Positions 3,541 through 30,640 of a stretch of DNA of 55,937 nucleotides are shown here, in pieces. Source of the stretch: Lachnospiraceae bacterium. GTDB lineage: Bacteria > Bacillota > Clostridia > Lachnospirales > Lachnospiraceae. The notes beneath the pieces were generated by a model that had not been told where the DNA came from, searched no databases, and worked only from the letters and a program-made list of their open reading frames with translations. The number at the start of each line of letters is the position of its first letter. Position 1 is the stretch's first letter. Position numbers and translations under genes: made by a program. Location of the stretch: NCBI GenBank assembly GCA_017619295.1, contig JAFZSQ010000020.1, forward strand, positions 1 to 55,937, written 5' to 3'.

Positions 3541-4623
3541 ATGAAGAAGAATTTTTTTATAATCTTATCCGCACTAACTTTGTCTTCTCTTCTTTTCGGC
3601 TGTTCTTCTGTAAACAGTCCTTCTGAAACAGGTACTTCTGAAGTTGGTACTTCTGAAGCCGGTACTTCTGAGGTCGGTTCCCAGACAGTGTCAGAAGACC
3701 CTGAGGCAAAAACTCTTGAGTCACTGACAAAGCTTGCCGACGGAATCTACCTCCTTGATTCCTACACGGACCATAAGGTAGAAGAGTACCTGGCTGAAAA
3801 CATCAAAGACGTGGTTTCTTTTGATGTCTGGATGACTAACAACCTTACCCATGGAGTTCCCACCGGGGATATTCCTGATATGGGATGCTCATCTTTCAGC
3901 GTCCTTGATCCTTCCGGGAATCACCTCTTCGGAAGAAATTACGATATGCCTTACCCGGCAGATTCTTTGATTATAAGAACACATCCCACTGAGGGTTATT
4001 CTTCTATCGGAATAGTTGATATGCTTCATATCAATCTTGGGAATCACTGTGACTATTCCATTGAAGATGAAGAAAGTATGTCCCTTCTTTTCGCAGCACC
4101 CTGGTGTATCTGCGACGAAATTAATGAGAAAGGTCTTGGTATATCTGTTCTTGAACTAGATAACAAGCATGTTGTAAATGATACGTCAAAGCCTGATCTT
4201 CTGATGTACTCCGCCTCACGCGTAGTTCTTGATAAGTGTGCCTCGGTAGAAGAAGCCATATCCCTGCTTGGCGAATATGACATCTACTCACCCCGAACCA
4301 ATTCCTACCATTTCTTTGTCACCGATATAACCGGTCGTTCAGTTATCCTGGAATGGATTGATGGAGAGCTGACTGTAGTTGATAGCCCAGCCGTTACCAA
4401 CTTCCTTATGGCAACCGGAGGAAGCGACCCTGACCAGCGCCGCACCAAGATAGAGAGAAACTTAAATTCCGTGGACTCCATGACCGCGGGGGACGCCATG
4501 GCTGTTCTTAAGCTTGTTAACCGCCAAACCCGTTGGTCCGCAGTCTACAACCTTGAGGAGTTCAGTGTGGATGTCTGCTTCAATGCGGACTATTCGAATA
4601 CCTATAATGTTACATGGAAATAA
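3541..4623 (+). CDS. Lipoprotein Ntn-type linear amide C-N hydrolase
   Basis: A 360-residue exported protein. Residues 1-21 are a lipoprotein signal with lipobox LFGC, so Cys21 should carry the lipid. A Gly-Thr-Ser-Glu repeat linker (about residues 30-47) follows. The body matches the choloylglycine-hydrolase/acyltransferase-like Ntn family: MGCSSF with candidate nucleophile Cys116, then FGRNYD (Arg132, Asn133, Asp135). In this family the Cys must become the N-terminus of its chain, so cleavage between Gly115 and Cys116 would be expected. Substrate unknown (bile salts, acyl-amides, penicillin V or N-acyl homoserine lactones occur in the family). ATG follows GAGGGGAAGGGAG. Flanked by a terminator. 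Confidence 0.8.
   Translation: MKKNFFIILSALTLSSLLFGCSSVNSPSETGTSEVGTSEAGTSEVGSQTVSEDPEAKTLESLTKLADGIYLLDSYTDHKVEEYLAENIKDVVSFDVWMTNNLTHGVPTGDIPDMGCSSFSVLDPSGNHLFGRNYDMPYPADSLIIRTHPTEGYSSIGIVDMLHINLGNHCDYSIEDEESMSLLFAAPWCICDEINEKGLGISVLELDNKHVVNDTSKPDLLMYSASRVVLDKCASVEEAISLLGEYDIYSPRTNSYHFFVTDITGRSVILEWIDGELTVVDSPAVTNFLMATGGSDPDQRRTKIERNLNSVDSMTAGDAMAVLKLVNRQTRWSAVYNLEEFSVDVCFNADYSNTYNVTWK
3631..3675 (+). repeat. Three 15-bp tandem repeats coding a GTSEx linker
   Basis: Three copies of GGTACTTCTGARGYY at 3631, 3646 and 3661, with a decayed fourth before them. They encode GTSEV-GTSEA-GTSEV, a flexible spacer between the lipid-anchored Cys21 and the enzyme domain. Copy number could vary by slippage. 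Confidence 0.9.
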
Positions 4624-5160: not shown

Positions 5161-5844
5161 ATGAGCATTAACTTTTCAGGCAATGATTACAGTTATCTAT
5201 TTTCCGGTTTAAATAATTCATCAGGTACCAATACATCTTCTAATTTGCTCAGCGATTACGCAAGCATCAAGAACGGAAGCTATGCCAAACTCATGAAGGC
5301 ATACTACAATGAAGGTGGATCAAAGGGAAGTACCAAAGCTTCAACCGATAAGGCTTCAAAGGACGATACCGCCATCAAGAGTCTTAATAAGGTTCAGACA
5401 GCAACAGACAATCTTAAGAAGACTGCTGAAGCAATTACCAAGAAAGATTCTATCGAATACGATGACATCAAAGCATTCGTAGATGATTACAATTCTCTTA
5501 TTTCAGCAGCCAACAAGATTTCCGACAACTCAACAATCAACAGAACCACTCGTTTGGTCGGTGATACCCTTGCAAACAATAAGTTGTTAAGAAGTGTGGG
5601 AATCACAATCAACGAAGACAGCACTCTTTCTGTTGACAAGGATACTTTCGAGAAGGCTAACAAGCTTACCGTTGATTCTCTTTTCAAGGGCGCCGGTTCC
5701 TATGGAGACAAGATTTCTTCACAGGCTTCTCTCATTAAGTATTCGGCTGACAGAGCCGTTAGCAAGGCAGGCGGAACATACACAGCGAAAGGCAATTATG
5801 ACACCGCTACCGCCGCAGGAAATCTCTACAATTCATACACGTAA
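5161..5844 (+). CDS. FliD C-terminal-domain-like protein of unknown role
   Basis: 227 residues from the ATG at 5161, chosen because GGAGGTGAT lies 7-15 nt upstream; an upstream in-frame GTG at 5131 lacks such a site. Residues 1-45 are Ser/Asn-rich with LLSDYASIKNGSY. A Lys/Ala/Thr-rich coiled region follows. Residues ~95-200 resemble the C-terminal domain of the flagellar cap FliD (DDYNSLI, LRSVGITINEDSTLSVD, SLFKGAGSYG). No signal peptide and no transmembrane segment. A flagellar-type or type-III-exported small protein is possible, but it is much shorter than FliD (usually above 400 residues) and no flagellar gene is adjacent. Monocistronic, between a strong promoter and a terminator. Confidence 0.65.
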   Translation: MSINFSGNDYSYLFSGLNNSSGTNTSSNLLSDYASIKNGSYAKLMKAYYNEGGSKGSTKASTDKASKDDTAIKSLNKVQTATDNLKKTAEAITKKDSIEYDDIKAFVDDYNSLISAANKISDNSTINRTTRLVGDTLANNKLLRSVGITINEDSTLSVDKDTFEKANKLTVDSLFKGAGSYGDKISSQASLIKYSADRAVSKAGGTYTAKGNYDTATAAGNLYNSYT

Positions 5845-5855
5845 TGAAAAGTTTT

Positions 5856-5890
5856 AAAGGTCGCAGATACAATTCTGCGACCTTTATTTT
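5856..5890 (+). terminator. Intrinsic terminator
   Basis: Stem AAAGGTCGCAGA/TCTGCGACCTTT (5856-5867 with 5874-5885) followed by a T-rich tract; 12 bp after the stop of the FliD-C-like gene. Confidence 0.95.
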
Positions 5891-5939
5891 TTTACCCTGA
5901 GACTATATAATAAAGTATATTTAGATGGAGGGTTGAGTT

Positions 5940-6482
5940 ATGAAAAAGTATAAAGAATTAATATATGCAGTGACAATAGTAGTGGTAGTGATTGTTCTTC
6001 TTTTTGCTGTTTTTTATGTTCCGAAGTATATCAGATACACGCGAGCAAGGGAAGAAGCACATTCATCTATTGAAAAACTGATGGAGCAGAGAGATTCCAT
6101 TGATGATATCCTATTTTATGATTATCATTCTTCCCCTTTCGAAGAATATCAGATTTCCGACAAAGAACAAATCGAGAAAGTAATGGATGTCCTTGGATCC
6201 GTTGAACTTAAGCCGATTGAAATCTCAAAAGAGCAAAAAATGGACTCTATGTGGAATCTTTCGAGAGAGCGTAAAACCGGGTTTTCCCTTTGTTTTGATA
6301 TGAACCCTGATTTTGCAGCAGGTTATTGGCTTCTTACTTTGGATTGCGATGAAGAACTTTCTGATTTTACCATGCTACATACAGCTGAAATTGATATTGA
6401 CTCAACATTATATGATTTCTGCTGTTACACCAAATCCGAGCCACTATACGAAAAGATAAAGAGCATTTTTAAAGAGAGGTGA
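5940..6482 (+). CDS. Small membrane-anchored protein, unknown
   Basis: 180 residues. Residues ~8-30 form one strongly hydrophobic helix (AVTIVVVVIVLLFAVFYV) preceded by Lys residues, so the remaining ~150 residues probably lie outside the membrane. The soluble part is acidic, with no motif I recognise; a helix-turn segment (EQIEKVMDVLGSV) recalls Firmicute extracytoplasmic domains of unknown function. SD GGAGGG precedes the ATG. The stop codon lies 3 nt before the M42 peptidase start, so the two are translationally linked, with no evident functional connection. Confidence 0.7.
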   Translation: MKKYKELIYAVTIVVVVIVLLFAVFYVPKYIRYTRAREEAHSSIEKLMEQRDSIDDILFYDYHSSPFEEYQISDKEQIEKVMDVLGSVELKPIEISKEQKMDSMWNLSRERKTGFSLCFDMNPDFAAGYWLLTLDCDEELSDFTMLHTAEIDIDSTLYDFCCYTKSEPLYEKIKSIFKER

Positions 6483-6485
6483 ACT

Positions 6486-7523
6486 ATGAAAACTTCAAAG
6501 TACGTTTATTACGCAGTGGAAATGACAAAGAAGCTTCTTGCTATCGACAGCCCTTCAGGCTACACCAAGAAAGCTGCTGACTTTGTCGTAAAAGAATATG
6601 AAAAGATGGGTTACAAGCCCCAGGTGACAACCAAGGGAAGTGTTATCGTTGATATCGGAGGAAAGGACAAGAACAATGCCCTTCTCCTTGCAGCTCACGT
6701 AGATACCCTTGGCGCCATGGTTCATACCATTAAGGACAACGGTAACTTAAAGCTTGACCCCATCGGAGGTTTAAGCCCCAACAACACAGAGACCGAGAAC
6801 GTGAAGATTGTTACCAAAGCTAACGGAACATACGAAGGAACCTACCAGCTTACCAACGCTTCCATCCATGTTAACGGCGAGTTCGACGACACCAAGAGAA
6901 GCTGGGACAATATGGAAGTAGTTCTGGATCAGCCTGTTAAGTCCAAAGAAGATACAGAGAAGCTCGGAATCATGCCCGGCGATTATGTATGCTTCAATCC
7001 TCGCACAGTGGTTACCAAGAGTGGATATATCAAGAGCCGTTTCCTTGATGATAAGTTAAGCGTCGGAATTCTCCTTGCTTATGCCAAGTATCTTAAGGAA
7101 GAGAACAAGACTCTCGACAGAAAACAGTACCACTACATCACAGTTTACGAGGAAGAGGGTCACGGATGCGGTTCCTCAATTCCTGCAGGTGTAACCGAAG
7201 CAATCTCTGTTGACATGGGTTGTGTAGGTGAAGGCCTTAACTGTACCGAAAGACAGGTATCCATTTGTGCCAAGTCTTCAAGAGGTCCCTACAACTATGA
7301 GATTGTAAGTAACCTCATTGCAATTGCCAAGAGAGCAAAGCTTGATTTCGCTGTGGACATCTACCCTCACTATGGCTCAGATGTTGATATCGCAGTGAGA
7401 GCAGGTTTCGATGTAAAACATGGCCTCATCGGTGCAGGCGTTTATGCTTCACACGGTTATGAGAGAAGCCACATTGATGGTGTAGCCAACACCCTTGAGC
7501 TCATAGCTTTATATGCCAAATAG
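6486..7523 (+). CDS. M42 family zinc/cobalt aminopeptidase (FrvX/glutamyl aminopeptidase-like)
   Basis: 345 residues, standard length for M42 peptidases, which form TET dodecamers that trim peptides in the cytosol. Metal and catalytic residues are visible in order: AAHVDT (His, Asp), SRFLDDK (bridging Asp), YEEEGHG (catalytic Glu pair), SVDMG (Asp) and the final ERSH (His). No signal peptide. SD AGAGGTGA overlaps the upstream stop. Some family members were once labelled endoglucanases; the metal set argues for a peptidase. Followed by a clear terminator. Confidence 0.9.
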   Translation: MKTSKYVYYAVEMTKKLLAIDSPSGYTKKAADFVVKEYEKMGYKPQVTTKGSVIVDIGGKDKNNALLLAAHVDTLGAMVHTIKDNGNLKLDPIGGLSPNNTETENVKIVTKANGTYEGTYQLTNASIHVNGEFDDTKRSWDNMEVVLDQPVKSKEDTEKLGIMPGDYVCFNPRTVVTKSGYIKSRFLDDKLSVGILLAYAKYLKEENKTLDRKQYHYITVYEEEGHGCGSSIPAGVTEAISVDMGCVGEGLNCTERQVSICAKSSRGPYNYEIVSNLIAIAKRAKLDFAVDIYPHYGSDVDIAVRAGFDVKHGLIGAGVYASHGYERSHIDGVANTLELIALYAK

Positions 7524-10456: not shown

Positions 10457-11620
10457 TTATTTTATTTCCATAGCTTCATAAATCATATCTCTAATCTTTG
10501 GATGAATCACATGATAGTTGTCGCCAAAACATGTAACGTGCTCAGCATAGAAAACAGAAATGTTATTCTTTGTATCAACCAGAGCATATGCACCTGCGGC
10601 TCCGTCCCATCCAAACTCTCCAACGGGGCTCTTTGATTTGCTTCCGTCCACAAGCACTCTTACACCAAGGCCATACTGATATCCGATTCTGTTAAGGGAA
10701 TCAAAGTCCTTCTTAAGCTGACCAAAGGTTGTATAGGGATGTGTGAAAAGCTCAATTGTCTCAGGTTTTAAGATTCTCTTTCCTGTTTTGCCTACGCCAC
10801 CGCAAGCGAGAGCGTCAACAACAAGAATATAGGAATCAACACTTCCGATTAAGCCCGCACCGCCGCTTTCATAGTTCTTTGTAAAAGTGAATTCGTCTGC
10901 CTTCTCATCACTTATTCCATAGAAAGGGGGCTTGTCATTATCAGCTGTATAAATCGCACAAAGTCTCTTCTTTGTGGCCTCATCAATCTGTCTCTGGAAA
11001 TAAAAATCCTTTGCTCCCAAGGGTTCAAATATATATTTCTTTAAGTACTCAGAGAACTTCATTCCGCTTACAACCTCGATTACCGCTGCCAAAACGTCGT
11101 GAGAGAGGCTGTAGTTCCATCCGGTTCCGGGCTCAAATAAAAGGGGAACCTTTGAAAGGGCTTCAATCATTTCTCTTGTACTTGCGTTGTCTGCACTTTC
11201 CTTGATTTTCTCCTGAAGAGCAGGGGCATACAAATCATATGAAAATCCTGCACTCATGGTCATCAAATCAATGATTCTGATATCGTTGTGAGCAACATGA
11301 CAAACATCCTCATTTTCGGGGAGGCGGCTTTTCACAAGAACGTGATCATATTCGGGCAAATAGTCACTTAATCTGTCGTGTAATTTAATTTTCCCCTGCT
11401 CAACAAGCTGGAGAACCGCCGTCATTGTAATTACCTTTGTGGCCGAATAGAGTTTGTACAGATTGTTCGGTGTAACGGGAGTTTTCTTCTCGTAATCCGA
11501 ATAGCCGAAGCTGTGTCTGTGAACCTCTTCATGGTCCTTCATTACAAGCAAATCACCCACAGGCATTCCGTAGGTATCCTGTAACGAATCAAGATAACTG
11601 TCTAGTTTGTCAAAACTCAT
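10457..11620 (-). CDS. Beta-lactamase-fold serine hydrolase
   Basis: 387 residues, class-C beta-lactamase/esterase fold. Catalytic SxxK appears as LYSATKVITM, the second motif as WNYSLSHD (Tyr-Ser-Leu, as in EstB-like esterases rather than YxN of true beta-lactamases), and a Gly-rich third region as FGWDGAAGAY. There is no signal peptide, so a cytosolic esterase or peptidase role fits better than antibiotic resistance. SD AGGAGAGG. Last gene of the MBL-AKR-YnbB-PnuC operon, 11 nt after its neighbour. Confidence 0.88.
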   Translation of the reverse strand: MSFDKLDSYLDSLQDTYGMPVGDLLVMKDHEEVHRHSFGYSDYEKKTPVTPNNLYKLYSATKVITMTAVLQLVEQGKIKLHDRLSDYLPEYDHVLVKSRLPENEDVCHVAHNDIRIIDLMTMSAGFSYDLYAPALQEKIKESADNASTREMIEALSKVPLLFEPGTGWNYSLSHDVLAAVIEVVSGMKFSEYLKKYIFEPLGAKDFYFQRQIDEATKKRLCAIYTADNDKPPFYGISDEKADEFTFTKNYESGGAGLIGSVDSYILVVDALACGGVGKTGKRILKPETIELFTHPYTTFGQLKKDFDSLNRIGYQYGLGVRVLVDGSKSKSPVGEFGWDGAAGAYALVDTKNNISVFYAEHVTCFGDNYHVIHPKIRDMIYEAMEIK

Positions 11621-15465: not shown

Positions 15466-17046
15466 TTAGATATTGAGAAGATCGCTGTATGCTTTAAGTG
15501 CTCCGTCAGTCTCATGTGCAAGAACTTTCTTTGCAAGAACCTTACCAAGCTGCACGCCTTCCTGGTCGAAGCTGTTGAGGTTCCATGTGAAGCCCTGGAA
15601 CATGATCTTGTTCTCGAAGTGTGAGAGAAGTGCTCCCAAAGCTTCGGGAGTAAGCTGCTCACCGATGATGATGGATGAAGGTCTGTTACCCTCGAACTTC
15701 TTGTTGTTGTTCTCATCATCCTTACCACATGCAAAAGCAACAATCTGTGCTGCTACGTTAGCACATAACTTCTGCTGGCTGGTGCTTCCCTGGATAACAA
15801 CATCAGTTCCGATCTGGCTGTTCTTAAATCCGATGAACTGAAGAGGGATGATGTCTGTTCCCTGGTGAAGGAGCTGGTAGAATGAGTGCTGTCCGTTGGT
15901 TCCGGGCTCACCGTAGATAACGGGACCGGTTACATAGTTAACGGGCTCGCCGAAACGGTTAACACTCTTACCGTTTGATTCCATGTCAGCCTGCTGAAGG
16001 TGTGCAGGGAAACGGCTGAGTGCCTGAGAGTAAGGAAGGACTGCTGTTGTAGCCATTCCAAGAATGTTTCTCTCGTATACACCGATAAGTGCATCAAGCA
16101 TAGCAGGGTTCTCAAGGAGATTAGCGTTTGTTGCAAGCTTGTCTTCCTCAGCTGCACCCTTTAAGAATCTTGCGAATACTTCAGGTCCGAATGCAAGTGA
16201 TAAAACAGCTCCACCTACGCCCGATGTGGATGAGAAACGTCCGCCAATATAGTCATCCATAAAGAATGCTGCAAGATAATCACTGCTCTTTGCAAGAGGT
16301 GATGTCTCACTTGTTACGGCTACCATGTGCTTAGAAGCATCAAGGCCTGCCTTCTTAAGAGCATCCTTTACGAAGGATTCGTTTGTAAGAGTCTCAAGTG
16401 TTGTACCTGATTTGGAAACAAGTACGAAGATTGAATGAGCAACATCAACTGAATTAAGAACGGCTGCTGCATCATCAGGGTCAACGTTACTGATGAACTT
16501 TGCTTCCATTTTGAAGTTGCCGGTTTTTCTGGCCCAGTTTTCAAGGCCGATGTACATAGCTCTGGGGCCAAGGTCACTTCCGCCGATACCGATCTGAACA
16601 ACGGTTGTGAACTTCTCGCCTGCGCCGTTTACGATCTCACCGTTATGTACTTTATTTGCAAAATCAGCAATTTTCTTCTGCTCGTTAAGGTAGAATTCTC
16701 TCTTGTTTACGCCGTCGCATACAACGTCGTCACCAAGCTGTCCTCTGGTTAACTGGTGAAGAACAAGTCTCTTCTCACCTGTGTTGATTACAGCACCGTT
16801 GTAGAGTTCTTTGAACTTGTCAGCAAGCTCAGCCTCTTTAGCAAGTGCTTCAAGTGCTTTCAAAACATCGTCGTCAACAGCCTTTGCTGCGTAGTTGTAG
16901 TTAAGGCCTGCTGCCATTTTTACTGAATATTTAGCTACTCTCTTTGCACCTTCCTCACCGCTCATTACGGATTTAAGGTTTACCTTCTTTACATTCTTAA
17001 GGTCAGAGAAGCTTTTTAATGTATCAAGATTTTTCCAATTAGCCAT
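15466..17046 (-). CDS. pgi: Glucose-6-phosphate isomerase
   Basis: 526 residues. It interconverts glucose 6-phosphate and fructose 6-phosphate in the cytosol. Hallmarks: IGIGGSDLGPRA, FVLVSKSGTTLET (phosphate-binding SGT), GGRFSSTSGVG, the catalytic Glu in GEPGTNGQHSF, and QGTDIIPLQFIGF with His before it. Length and motifs resemble the longer E. coli-type group rather than the ~450-residue Bacillus type. SD AGGAGGA. Monocistronic with its own promoter and terminator. A palindrome overlapping the -35 hints at carbon-source control, sensible next to glucan-degradation genes. Confidence 0.97.
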   Translation of the reverse strand: MANWKNLDTLKSFSDLKNVKKVNLKSVMSGEEGAKRVAKYSVKMAAGLNYNYAAKAVDDDVLKALEALAKEAELADKFKELYNGAVINTGEKRLVLHQLTRGQLGDDVVCDGVNKREFYLNEQKKIADFANKVHNGEIVNGAGEKFTTVVQIGIGGSDLGPRAMYIGLENWARKTGNFKMEAKFISNVDPDDAAAVLNSVDVAHSIFVLVSKSGTTLETLTNESFVKDALKKAGLDASKHMVAVTSETSPLAKSSDYLAAFFMDDYIGGRFSSTSGVGGAVLSLAFGPEVFARFLKGAAEEDKLATNANLLENPAMLDALIGVYERNILGMATTAVLPYSQALSRFPAHLQQADMESNGKSVNRFGEPVNYVTGPVIYGEPGTNGQHSFYQLLHQGTDIIPLQFIGFKNSQIGTDVVIQGSTSQQKLCANVAAQIVAFACGKDDENNNKKFEGNRPSSIIIGEQLTPEALGALLSHFENKIMFQGFTWNLNSFDQEGVQLGKVLAKKVLAHETDGALKAYSDLLNI

Positions 17047-17111: not shown

Positions 17112-17286
17112 GGTCATATGTTTTTAGTTTTACCACCCCCCTCAACAAAGCCTTTATTTCTCTCGGAAAGCTTTGCTGGTATGGATTTGATCACGGGGAT
17201 AAGGGATTGCACTGGAGCTTTTGGAAAAAGGATGACTGAGACACAATCCCGGTAAGGGCAAGAAATTGTACTGAATTATAGCAAAA
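17112..17286. other. Gene-free stretch upstream of pgi
   Basis: 175 bp with no open reading frame that has a ribosome-binding site and no strong hairpin. Only a weak CAAAGC/GCTTTG pairing around 17142-17174 is seen. It separates the pgi promoter from the palindromic array. Confidence 0.6.
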
Positions 17287-17600
17287 TACTAATGGAATTT
17301 CACGTTTTGAATTCCATTAGTATTTTTTTTGCTTGTATGACTAACAAATTTGTCTTTTTGTCCTCTTGTTAGTACCTCGTTAGCGACTTAACTCGCCAAG
17401 TCACTAATGAAACAGCAAGCATAATCATCTGTTAGTACATGCATACGGGCATTCCACTAACAAATATTAACACCTATAAATTTGTTAGTACTCTCCGCGA
17501 TGGCTACACTAACAAATGCTAGCTTCCATTGATTTGTTAGTATTATCCGTGATAACGGCACTAACAGATGTACGGCAGCAAGTTTTTCGACCCCCATACA
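17287..17600. repeat. Array of about six 52-bp palindromic units
   Basis: Left arm ACTAACAAAT (or a variant), ~14-nt loop, right arm ATTTGTTAGTA(C), ~15-nt spacer. Units begin at 17287, 17339, 17402, 17455, 17507 and 17559: spacings 52, 63, 53, 52, 52. In the first unit both arms change together (ACTAATGGAAT with ATTCCATTAGT) so pairing is kept; it ends in eight T and could also be a terminator. Loops and spacers differ between units. The last unit runs into the MerR gene stop region and is incomplete. No known repeat family is recognised. Confidence 0.8.
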
Positions 17601-17605
17601 ACTGT

Positions 17606-18415
17606 TTAACCCACCGGAATGTAGATTTTAAAGAACATGGTGGGACTGAAGCGGTTGCCGCAGTAGAGATCAAGAATATTTCGTTCTATGGCAGGACCCT
17701 TGATTTTAAGGCCCTGTTTATTTATGTAATCAAGCATGACTTTGTAGGTTTCGTCTGCTTCAAAGTGCTCAACGGTTTTAATCTTCATATTCCCGACTAC
17801 ATATTTCCCGCTCTTAATCACCTCAGTGTAACTATTGGAGGATGCAAAGGGAATCTCGCTTATGTAGCCATACTTTTCGTAGTCGTGAAATCTTCCTGCA
17901 AGAAGGTTCTCGGGGGTTATGGTAGAAATGAGGCCTGCGGTGTTAGCCCATCCTGTGGCGCCGGAGGTGACGTTGATTATCTCATCTATATCAAGCTCGT
18001 CTTCCTCACCGAAGGGCTTACTCATCATATACATTTCTGGCAAAGTTACCAGCGAAATGTCCGATTCATAACAGGTATCCCTGATGTTATCATCGAAGAC
18101 CCTGACCTTGGTTTTCAGAAGCTCAAGCTCGGCAATCCTGTTGTTTATTTCCTCTCTGCAGCGCTTCAGCTCGCCTTGAACACCTCCGGCATTATCGTCA
18201 TTTAGTATTTCCGTAAGGCGTTTTATGGGAGTTCCGATGGATCGCATGAAAATAATCATGGAGATAATCTCAAACTGAGCCTTTGAGTAATATCTGTAGC
18301 TGTTCTCACCTTTCTTCCAGGGACTTAAAAGTTTGATACTGTCGTAATAGCGCAATGTGGGTGCAGGAATATTAAAGATTCTGCTGACTTCTCCTATAGT
18401 GTAGAACTCTTTCAT
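17606..18415 (-). CDS. MerR-family regulator with GyrI-like effector domain
   Basis: 269 residues. The MerR winged helix fills residues 1-70 (YTIGEVSRIFNIPAPTLRYYDSIKLLSP, NSYRYYS), followed by a coiled dimer helix (~85-115) and a C-terminal ~150-residue domain resembling the AraC/GyrI effector-binding domain of BmrR relatives. It is divergent from the sugar symporter/GH5 pair, whose promoter has the 19-bp spacer and central dyad used by MerR activators, so it very likely controls those genes. The effector may be a sugar or glycoside; that is inference. Confidence 0.9.
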   Translation of the reverse strand: MKEFYTIGEVSRIFNIPAPTLRYYDSIKLLSPWKKGENSYRYYSKAQFEIISMIIFMRSIGTPIKRLTEILNDDNAGGVQGELKRCREEINNRIAELELLKTKVRVFDDNIRDTCYESDISLVTLPEMYMMSKPFGEEDELDIDEIINVTSGATGWANTAGLISTITPENLLAGRFHDYEKYGYISEIPFASSNSYTEVIKSGKYVVGNMKIKTVEHFEADETYKVMLDYINKQGLKIKGPAIERNILDLYCGNRFSPTMFFKIYIPVG

Positions 18416-30609: not shown

Positions 30610-30640
30610 GTGCAATTTGGGGCCTGTCCCCATTTTGCAC
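30610..30640. repeat. REP-like hairpin directly after the AAA ATPase gene
   Basis: GTGCAA-TT-TGGGG, loop CCTGT, CCCCA-TT-TTGCAC, two stems around a symmetric internal bulge, touching the stop codon of the next gene. The GGGG-CCTGT-CCCC core is typical of REP palindromes mobilised by RAYT transposases. Only one copy is seen in the window. It may also act as a 3' mRNA stabiliser. Confidence 0.7.

What the first reader, a model, noticed from the sequence alone, without database searches (positions are those of the whole stretch)
17287..17600. Unexplained array of about six 52-bp palindromic units beside pgi
Seen directly: arms ACTAACAAAT and ATTTGTTAGTA(C) alternate in orientation roughly every 26 bp; unit starts are 52, 63, 53, 52 and 52 bp apart. 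Loops and spacers are not conserved, so selection seems to act on arms and geometry. In the first unit both arms changed together (ACTAATGGAAT with ATTCCATTAGT) and still pair, and the right arm of unit 3 (ATCTGTTAGT) is an exact complement of the left arm of unit 6 (ACTAACAGAT). That favours structure formation in RNA or single-stranded DNA over a plain binding site. The longer second unit has an extra hairpin at its boundary (TTAGCGACTT with AAGTCACTAA). It does not match CRISPR, attC or a REP pattern I know. It could be a structured noncoding RNA, a recombination or replication-related array, or a multi-site operator.
Basis: seen in the sequence. Interest (0 to 1): 0.75.

Follow-up and report, generated by a model that had tools for sequence, protein, structure and literature searches.

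The report
Genus-specific phased inverted-repeat DNA array
A Lachnospiraceae bacterium and a close relative carry three intergenic arrays in which a six-letter DNA word alternates direction at fixed spacing; the words look more like docking sites for an unknown DNA-binding protein than like folding RNA, but no protein or function has been shown.

Summary
The array is real: eleven ACTAAY/RTTAGT cores at 17288-17565, between a MerR-type gene and pgi, alternate strictly, 28 and 24-25 bp apart (one gap of 35). The same genome has two more arrays (at PSD/radical SAM and at UvrD). The one same-genus genome returned, Lachnospiraceae bacterium G11, has arrays at all three orthologous places with differing unit numbers. 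I found no array in 395 other family genomes, a GTDB contig pattern scan, or viral, phage and plasmid collections. Cores differ between the species at 0 of 114 sites, other array sites at 25 of 398, in four blocks I chose. Same-direction cores recur mostly at 52, 53, 63 or 64 bp, near whole helical turns, though a 13-bp period fits almost as well. I read it as a BIME-like array of double-stranded DNA sites for an unidentified protein that gains and loses units. It fails REP/BIME, CRISPR and attC membership. A neutral satellite or a 3' UTR hairpin array is not excluded.

The parts
17288..17565 (.). array of 11 alternating ACTAAY / RTTAGT cores (5 full pairs and one left core)
17283..17326 (+). 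first unit: 17-bp perfect hairpin with T-run, intrinsic-terminator-like (the scan reports the + strand only)
   Evidence: nearly the same hairpin at C54 and at the G11 PSD locus
17379..17384 (-). extra degenerate core GTTAGC inside the 35-bp gap, 11 bp after the previous core
   Evidence: sequence; at C54 the same place shows two 11-bp steps
17542..17559 (.). 24-bp-type spacer with an inner dyad CCGT/ACGG
17260..17282 (+). left flank resembling the 3' end of the radical SAM gene at C54: trace of a segmental copy
17606..18415 (-). MerR-type regulator; its stop codon lies about 40 bp from the last core
15466..17046 (-). pgi, phosphoglucose isomerase; starts about 240 bp beyond the array

Best explanation
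An intergenic array of double-stranded DNA docking sites. Each ACTAAY core (weakly extended to ACTAAYAAAT) is a half-site for an unidentified sequence-specific protein; cores alternate in direction, and cores of one direction lie close to whole helical turns apart, so that bound molecules would line up and could form one wrapped or bridged complex near the 3' end of the upstream gene. The arrays gain and lose units by slippage or unequal recombination, and the pgi array shares descent with the PSD/radical SAM array through a copy that took a few bases of the radical SAM gene's end with it. Shown: the arrays, their three conserved places, changing unit number, low core change, lack of arm covariation, the copied flank. 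Inferred: the protein, phasing as a cause, any effect on transcription or chromosome structure.
For: 66 of 75 successive gaps in the six arrays are 24, 25, 28 or 29 bp and 5 of the other 9 are 35 (counted by hand, two out-of-register ACTAAT words at C54 dropped). Same-direction distances are mostly 52, 53, 63, 64, with steps of 11 and 22 at one place. Cores: 0 of 114 sites changed between the species against 25 of 398 others in four blocks that I chose, p 0.0015; over all aligned pieces 10 of 236 against 101 of 882, sites not independent. The UvrD array keeps cores and spacing although most of its loops look unrelated. No arm covariation. All three places are occupied in both species.
Against: No protein is identified. 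Phase: a 10.5-bp period gives a mean concentration of 0.875 over six arrays, but 13.0 bp gives 0.814 and is the better of the two in 3 of 6; spacing can be inherited through tandem duplication, and I see only two independent length changes. Lone sites: of 35 places with TTAGT-N10..34-ACTAA, 19 lie outside the arrays; 4 of these 19 have the array spacing of 18-19 (1.5 expected if even, p 0.07), but three of the four lie in long open frames and only two have full cores; the reversed control pattern is commoner (238). So no lone operators support a regulator. The 24-bp spacers show inner dyads.
Confidence: 0.42

Rival explanations
1. Neutral or selfish satellite: a palindromic repeat amplified in tandem, copied once or twice between loci, and kept alike by recent duplication and conversion, without a binding protein.
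For: The G11 PSD array has near-identical 53-bp units; unit numbers differ between species; the pgi array carries a captured gene end; no lone sites in clear excess; seen in one genus only.
Against: Cores change less than loops in one-to-one blocks; the UvrD array has the same cores and spacing with mostly unrelated loops; three places kept in both species.
Confidence: 0.32
2. A 3' UTR array of RNA (or single-stranded DNA) hairpins that protects or ends transcripts of the upstream gene; the 24-bp spacer with its flanking cores would be the hairpin.
For: Arrays lie within about 100 bp after the stop codon of MerR, PSD and UvrD genes, in one polarity; the PSD stop codon lies inside a core in both species. 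The whole region folds better than plain shuffles (z -5.8 and -6.1). 24-bp spacers (11 after clustering) have excess inner dyads: DNA z -3.9 and -2.9, RNA z -2.6 on the + strand. Unit 1 is terminator-like.
Against: On the strand of the upstream genes the RNA excess of the spacers is only z -1.1. Arms do not covary; arms of 19 distinct 24-bp spacers are only slightly better than shuffled (41 of 114 against 37.5; 268 of 2000 shuffles as good). With cores kept and loops shuffled (60 shuffles) and the terminator left out, the three own arrays give z -0.5 to -2.3, G11 UvrD 0.2 and -2.0, G11 pgi -1.8 and -4.1; the G11 PSD array was not run; with the terminator the own pgi array gives -4.1 and -5.2. 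Rfam: one chance-level match, PhrS, E 0.75.
Confidence: 0.22
3. Operator array for the neighbouring MerR-type regulator, controlling pgi.
For: MerR-type gene and pgi flank the array.
Against: The genes next to the other two arrays are not MerR-type, and the PSD/radical SAM array lies between convergent genes.
Confidence: 0.04

Closest known systems
BIME-2 / REP arrays (bacterial interspersed mosaic elements)
   Same: extragenic, regularly spaced motifs in alternating orientation, tandem modules of variable number, inter-motif sequences without mutual homology, capture of a gene's 3' end (PMC2817692, passages seen)
   Different: core of 6-10 bp that is not itself a palindrome, no GT(A/G)G head, three loci instead of tens to hundreds of copies, and the genome's one Y1 transposase gene has a different palindrome around it
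Iteron or centromere-type site arrays (recalled)
   Same: several sites near helical spacing
   Different: chromosomal gaps beside unrelated genes, alternating rather than direct; no replication or partition gene recognised among the six array neighbours scanned
VNTR-type intergenic tandem repeats (recalled)
   Same: unit number differs between relatives
   Different: the UvrD array keeps cores and geometry while most of its loops have diverged

Membership tests
REP/BIME | regularly spaced motifs in alternating orientation, extragenic | tested here: met
   feature
REP/BIME | each motif an imperfect palindrome with a GT(A/G)G head | tested here: not met
   core ACTAAY(AAAT) is not palindromic and lacks that head (feature)
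REP/BIME | high copy number in the genome | tested here: not met
   three arrays found in the own genome
REP/BIME | cognate Y1 (RAYT) transposase flanked by the same motif | tested here: not met
   the one Y1_Tnp gene found lies among five GGGGAC..CCC palindromes; its 3.3-kb locus has three scattered cores and no array
CRISPR array | identical direct repeats with unique spacers | tested here: not met
   6-bp cores alternate in direction
CRISPR array | cas genes | not tested
   no cas search was made; six array neighbours scanned with Pfam are not cas
attC site | R'' RYYYAAC and R' GTTRRRY boxes (recalled) | tested here: not met
   CACTAAC and GTTAGTA/G break both patterns (list)
structured RNA of Rfam | match above gathering score | tested here: not met
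covarying hairpin array, 28-bp register | own arms pair better than shuffled arms | tested here: not met
covarying hairpin array, 24-bp register | own arms pair better than shuffled arms; inner dyads | tested here: inconclusive
protein-bound site array | a protein that binds the core | not testable with these tools
   needs a binding assay

The most novel reading that the evidence does not exclude
A lineage-specific kind of nucleoprotein array: half-sites in alternating direction, locked to helical phase, placed at the ends of unrelated genes, which organise or insulate the 3' ends of transcription units through a dedicated but unknown protein, without belonging to any REP/RAYT system.
Probability: 0.2. 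Interest if true: 0.65.

Novelty: new variant of a known kind. Interest (0 to 1): 0.4.

Why it matters
If the cores are protein sites, three small, well-defined arrays give a clean handle to fish out a new DNA-organising or 3'-end protein of Lachnospiraceae, and show that BIME-like architecture can arise without REP palindromes or a matching RAYT transposase. If they are neutral, they are a palindromic satellite caught between two species.

Tried and rejected
Compensatory arm changes: rejected by shuffling tests. RNA family: none above threshold. Phage, plasmid or viral origin: no match. RAYT partner: the one Y1 transposase gene found has other palindromes. Lone operators: no clear excess. Similar arrays behind the PSD gene of other genera: 11 loci from 10 other-genus genomes came back (L140-L149, L151). 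My walk to the stop codon printed 9 of the 11 and went wrong for several, such as those read on the opposite strand; the general scan for alternating 6-mers covered all loci then held, and its 60 printed rows, chains of 6 or more, were all from the genus. L055, the only other genome-contig hit with four cores within 350 bp, is irregular. The genome-contig scan used a pgi-type pair of 9-bp arms and could not have found an array of the UvrD type.

Literature, seen as search listings only (10 of 12, 12 of 124, 1 of 1, 10 of 61 and 10 of 59 papers listed): none listed describes this repeat. PMC2817692: passages. PMC3733652: none of my words found in its text. PMC3519859: passages; its ATTTGTTAGT belongs to a CRISPR spacer.

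The first one-to-one conservation count gave 10 of 121 against 33 of 393 (p 0.57), because one of four blocks was misaligned by one base and held an out-of-register ACTAAT; without that block it is 0 of 90 against 16 of 324 (p 0.018), and with it realigned, that word counted as non-core, 0 of 114 against 25 of 398 (p 0.0015).

Full report
Observation. The window stretch 17283-17570, between a MerR-type regulator gene (17606-18415, minus) and pgi (15466-17046, minus), holds eleven ACTAAY/RTTAGT cores that alternate without exception, 28 bp apart inside a unit and 24-25 bp between units, with one gap of 35.

It is one of three. A DNA search of the own genome found a second array at C54 (85% identical over 310 query bases, 10498-10819; cores run to 10843), between convergent radical SAM and PSD genes. 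A pattern of three alternating cores found 23 places in the genome, all in the pgi array, the C54 array and a third array at C36 beside a UvrD-type helicase gene; the reversed control gave 0 and 1. The genus-mate G001 is Lachnospiraceae bacterium G11: its contig lengths and sequence agree with loci L032 and L070. It has 29 such places in three arrays, at all three orthologous positions. In a sample of 397 family genomes, these two included, 9 matched; the other seven had one or two isolated places each, 8 in all, while the reversed control gave scattered single hits in many genomes. A DNA search of 145 genomes with the window array matched only the two genus members. A scan of the GTDB contig set for a pair of 9-bp arms of the pgi type gave 53 stretches, of which the two in G11 are arrays. 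Plasmids, phages and viral contigs gave none.

Geometry. In the six arrays 66 of 75 gaps between successive cores are 24, 25, 28 or 29 bp, and five more are 35; 72 of 75 steps change direction (counted by hand, two out-of-register ACTAAT words at C54 dropped). Same-direction distances are mostly 52 or 53, with several of 63 or 64, one of 74, and steps of 11 and 22 at one place; some others (25, 39, 69, 78, 117) come from missing, extra or degenerate cores, mainly in the UvrD arrays. The phase concentration at 10.5 bp is 0.63-0.98 (mean 0.875); at 13.0 bp it is 0.55-0.96 (mean 0.814) and higher than at 10.5 in 3 of the 6 arrays. Whole turns of B-DNA fit, but tandem copying carries spacing along and I see only two independent length changes, so I take phasing as suggestive.

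Arms do not covary. Cut from all six arrays, 37 units of the 28-29-bp type reduce to 31 distinct ones. Positions 1-5 are invariant because the search demanded it. At positions 6-12 own arms pair in 95 of 217 cells, shuffled arms in 99.7 on average, and 1581 of 2000 shuffles do at least as well. A second count on 23 of the distinct units (28-bp type only), wobble pairs allowed, gives 75.0% against 77.7%. The folding scores of the whole region (z -5.8 and -6.1) fall to between -0.5 and -2.3 for the three own arrays when the terminator is left out, cores are kept and loops are shuffled; the G11 pgi array on the gene strand stays at -4.1, and with its terminator the own pgi array stays at -4.1 and -5.2. 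Against my reading: the 24-bp spacers (11 after clustering) hold more inner dyad symmetry than shuffles (DNA z -3.9 and -2.9; RNA z -2.6 on the + strand, -1.1 on the strand of the upstream genes), while the 28-bp loops (13 after clustering) do so less clearly (z -0.95 to -1.6).

Conservation. In four one-to-one blocks between the two species, which I chose, 0 of 114 core sites and 25 of 398 other sites differ (p 0.0015; with three blocks 0 of 90 and 16 of 324, p 0.018). A looser count over all aligned pieces gives 10 of 236 against 101 of 882, sites not independent. In the left half of the UvrD array the loops are well kept too (6 of 152 sites changed), so constraint on the whole of that array is possible.

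Placement. At all three loci, in both species, the array begins within about 100 bp of a stop codon, and in one polarity. The PSD stop codon TAA lies inside a core in both species. In the window's species the UvrD stop codon does too, whereas the G11 UvrD frame ends earlier. The left flank of the pgi array resembles the end of the radical SAM gene of the C54 locus, so one array was copied with part of a neighbouring gene's end.

Lone sites. Of 35 places in the genome with TTAGT and ACTAA 10-34 bp apart, 19 lie outside the arrays. Four of these have the array spacing of 18-19 (1.5 expected if spacings were even, p 0.07); three of the four sit in long open frames and only two have full cores. 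The reversed control pattern is commoner (238). I see no set of lone operators.

What it works like. The nearest known architecture is the BIME: regularly spaced motifs in alternating orientation, variable module number, reported to bind gyrase, IHF or polymerase I (PMC2817692, passages seen). Membership fails: the motif is not a palindrome with a GT(A/G)G head, there are three loci, and the one Y1 transposase gene found lies among different palindromes. I commit to an array of double-stranded DNA sites for an unidentified protein (0.42), with a neutral satellite (0.32) and a 3' UTR hairpin array (0.22) as serious rivals.

Noticed in passing
L152 (own genome C45): palindromes starting at 1000, 1032, 1951, 1983 and 3060: One Y1 transposase ORF (1072-2031, minus) lies among copies of a palindrome of the type GTGCAATTTGGGGACTGTCCCCAAATTGCAC: probably a REP/RAYT system of its own.
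   Followed up: partly
window 30617-30633: One near copy (2 mismatches) of the TTGGGGACTGTCCCCAA palindrome of that family.
   Followed up: no
window 3605-3678: 15-bp tandem repeat, about 4.5 copies.
   Followed up: no
L137 6280-7377 (G11 PSD gene): The G11 phosphatidylserine decarboxylase frame is 365 aa against 306 in the window's species, through two stretches of repeated Ser/Gly/Ala-rich sequence.
   Followed up: partly
own genome C89:56845-56872 (L156): A lone 9-bp perfect dyad TTAGTAAAA / TTTTACTAA at the array's 18-bp spacing, not inside a long open frame; its outer bases do not fit the full core.
   Followed up: partly
L133 6509-6700: About 190 bp between the UvrD-side array and the next ORF is in part well conserved between the species; that ORF (5718-6509) has no Pfam match.
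   Followed up: no
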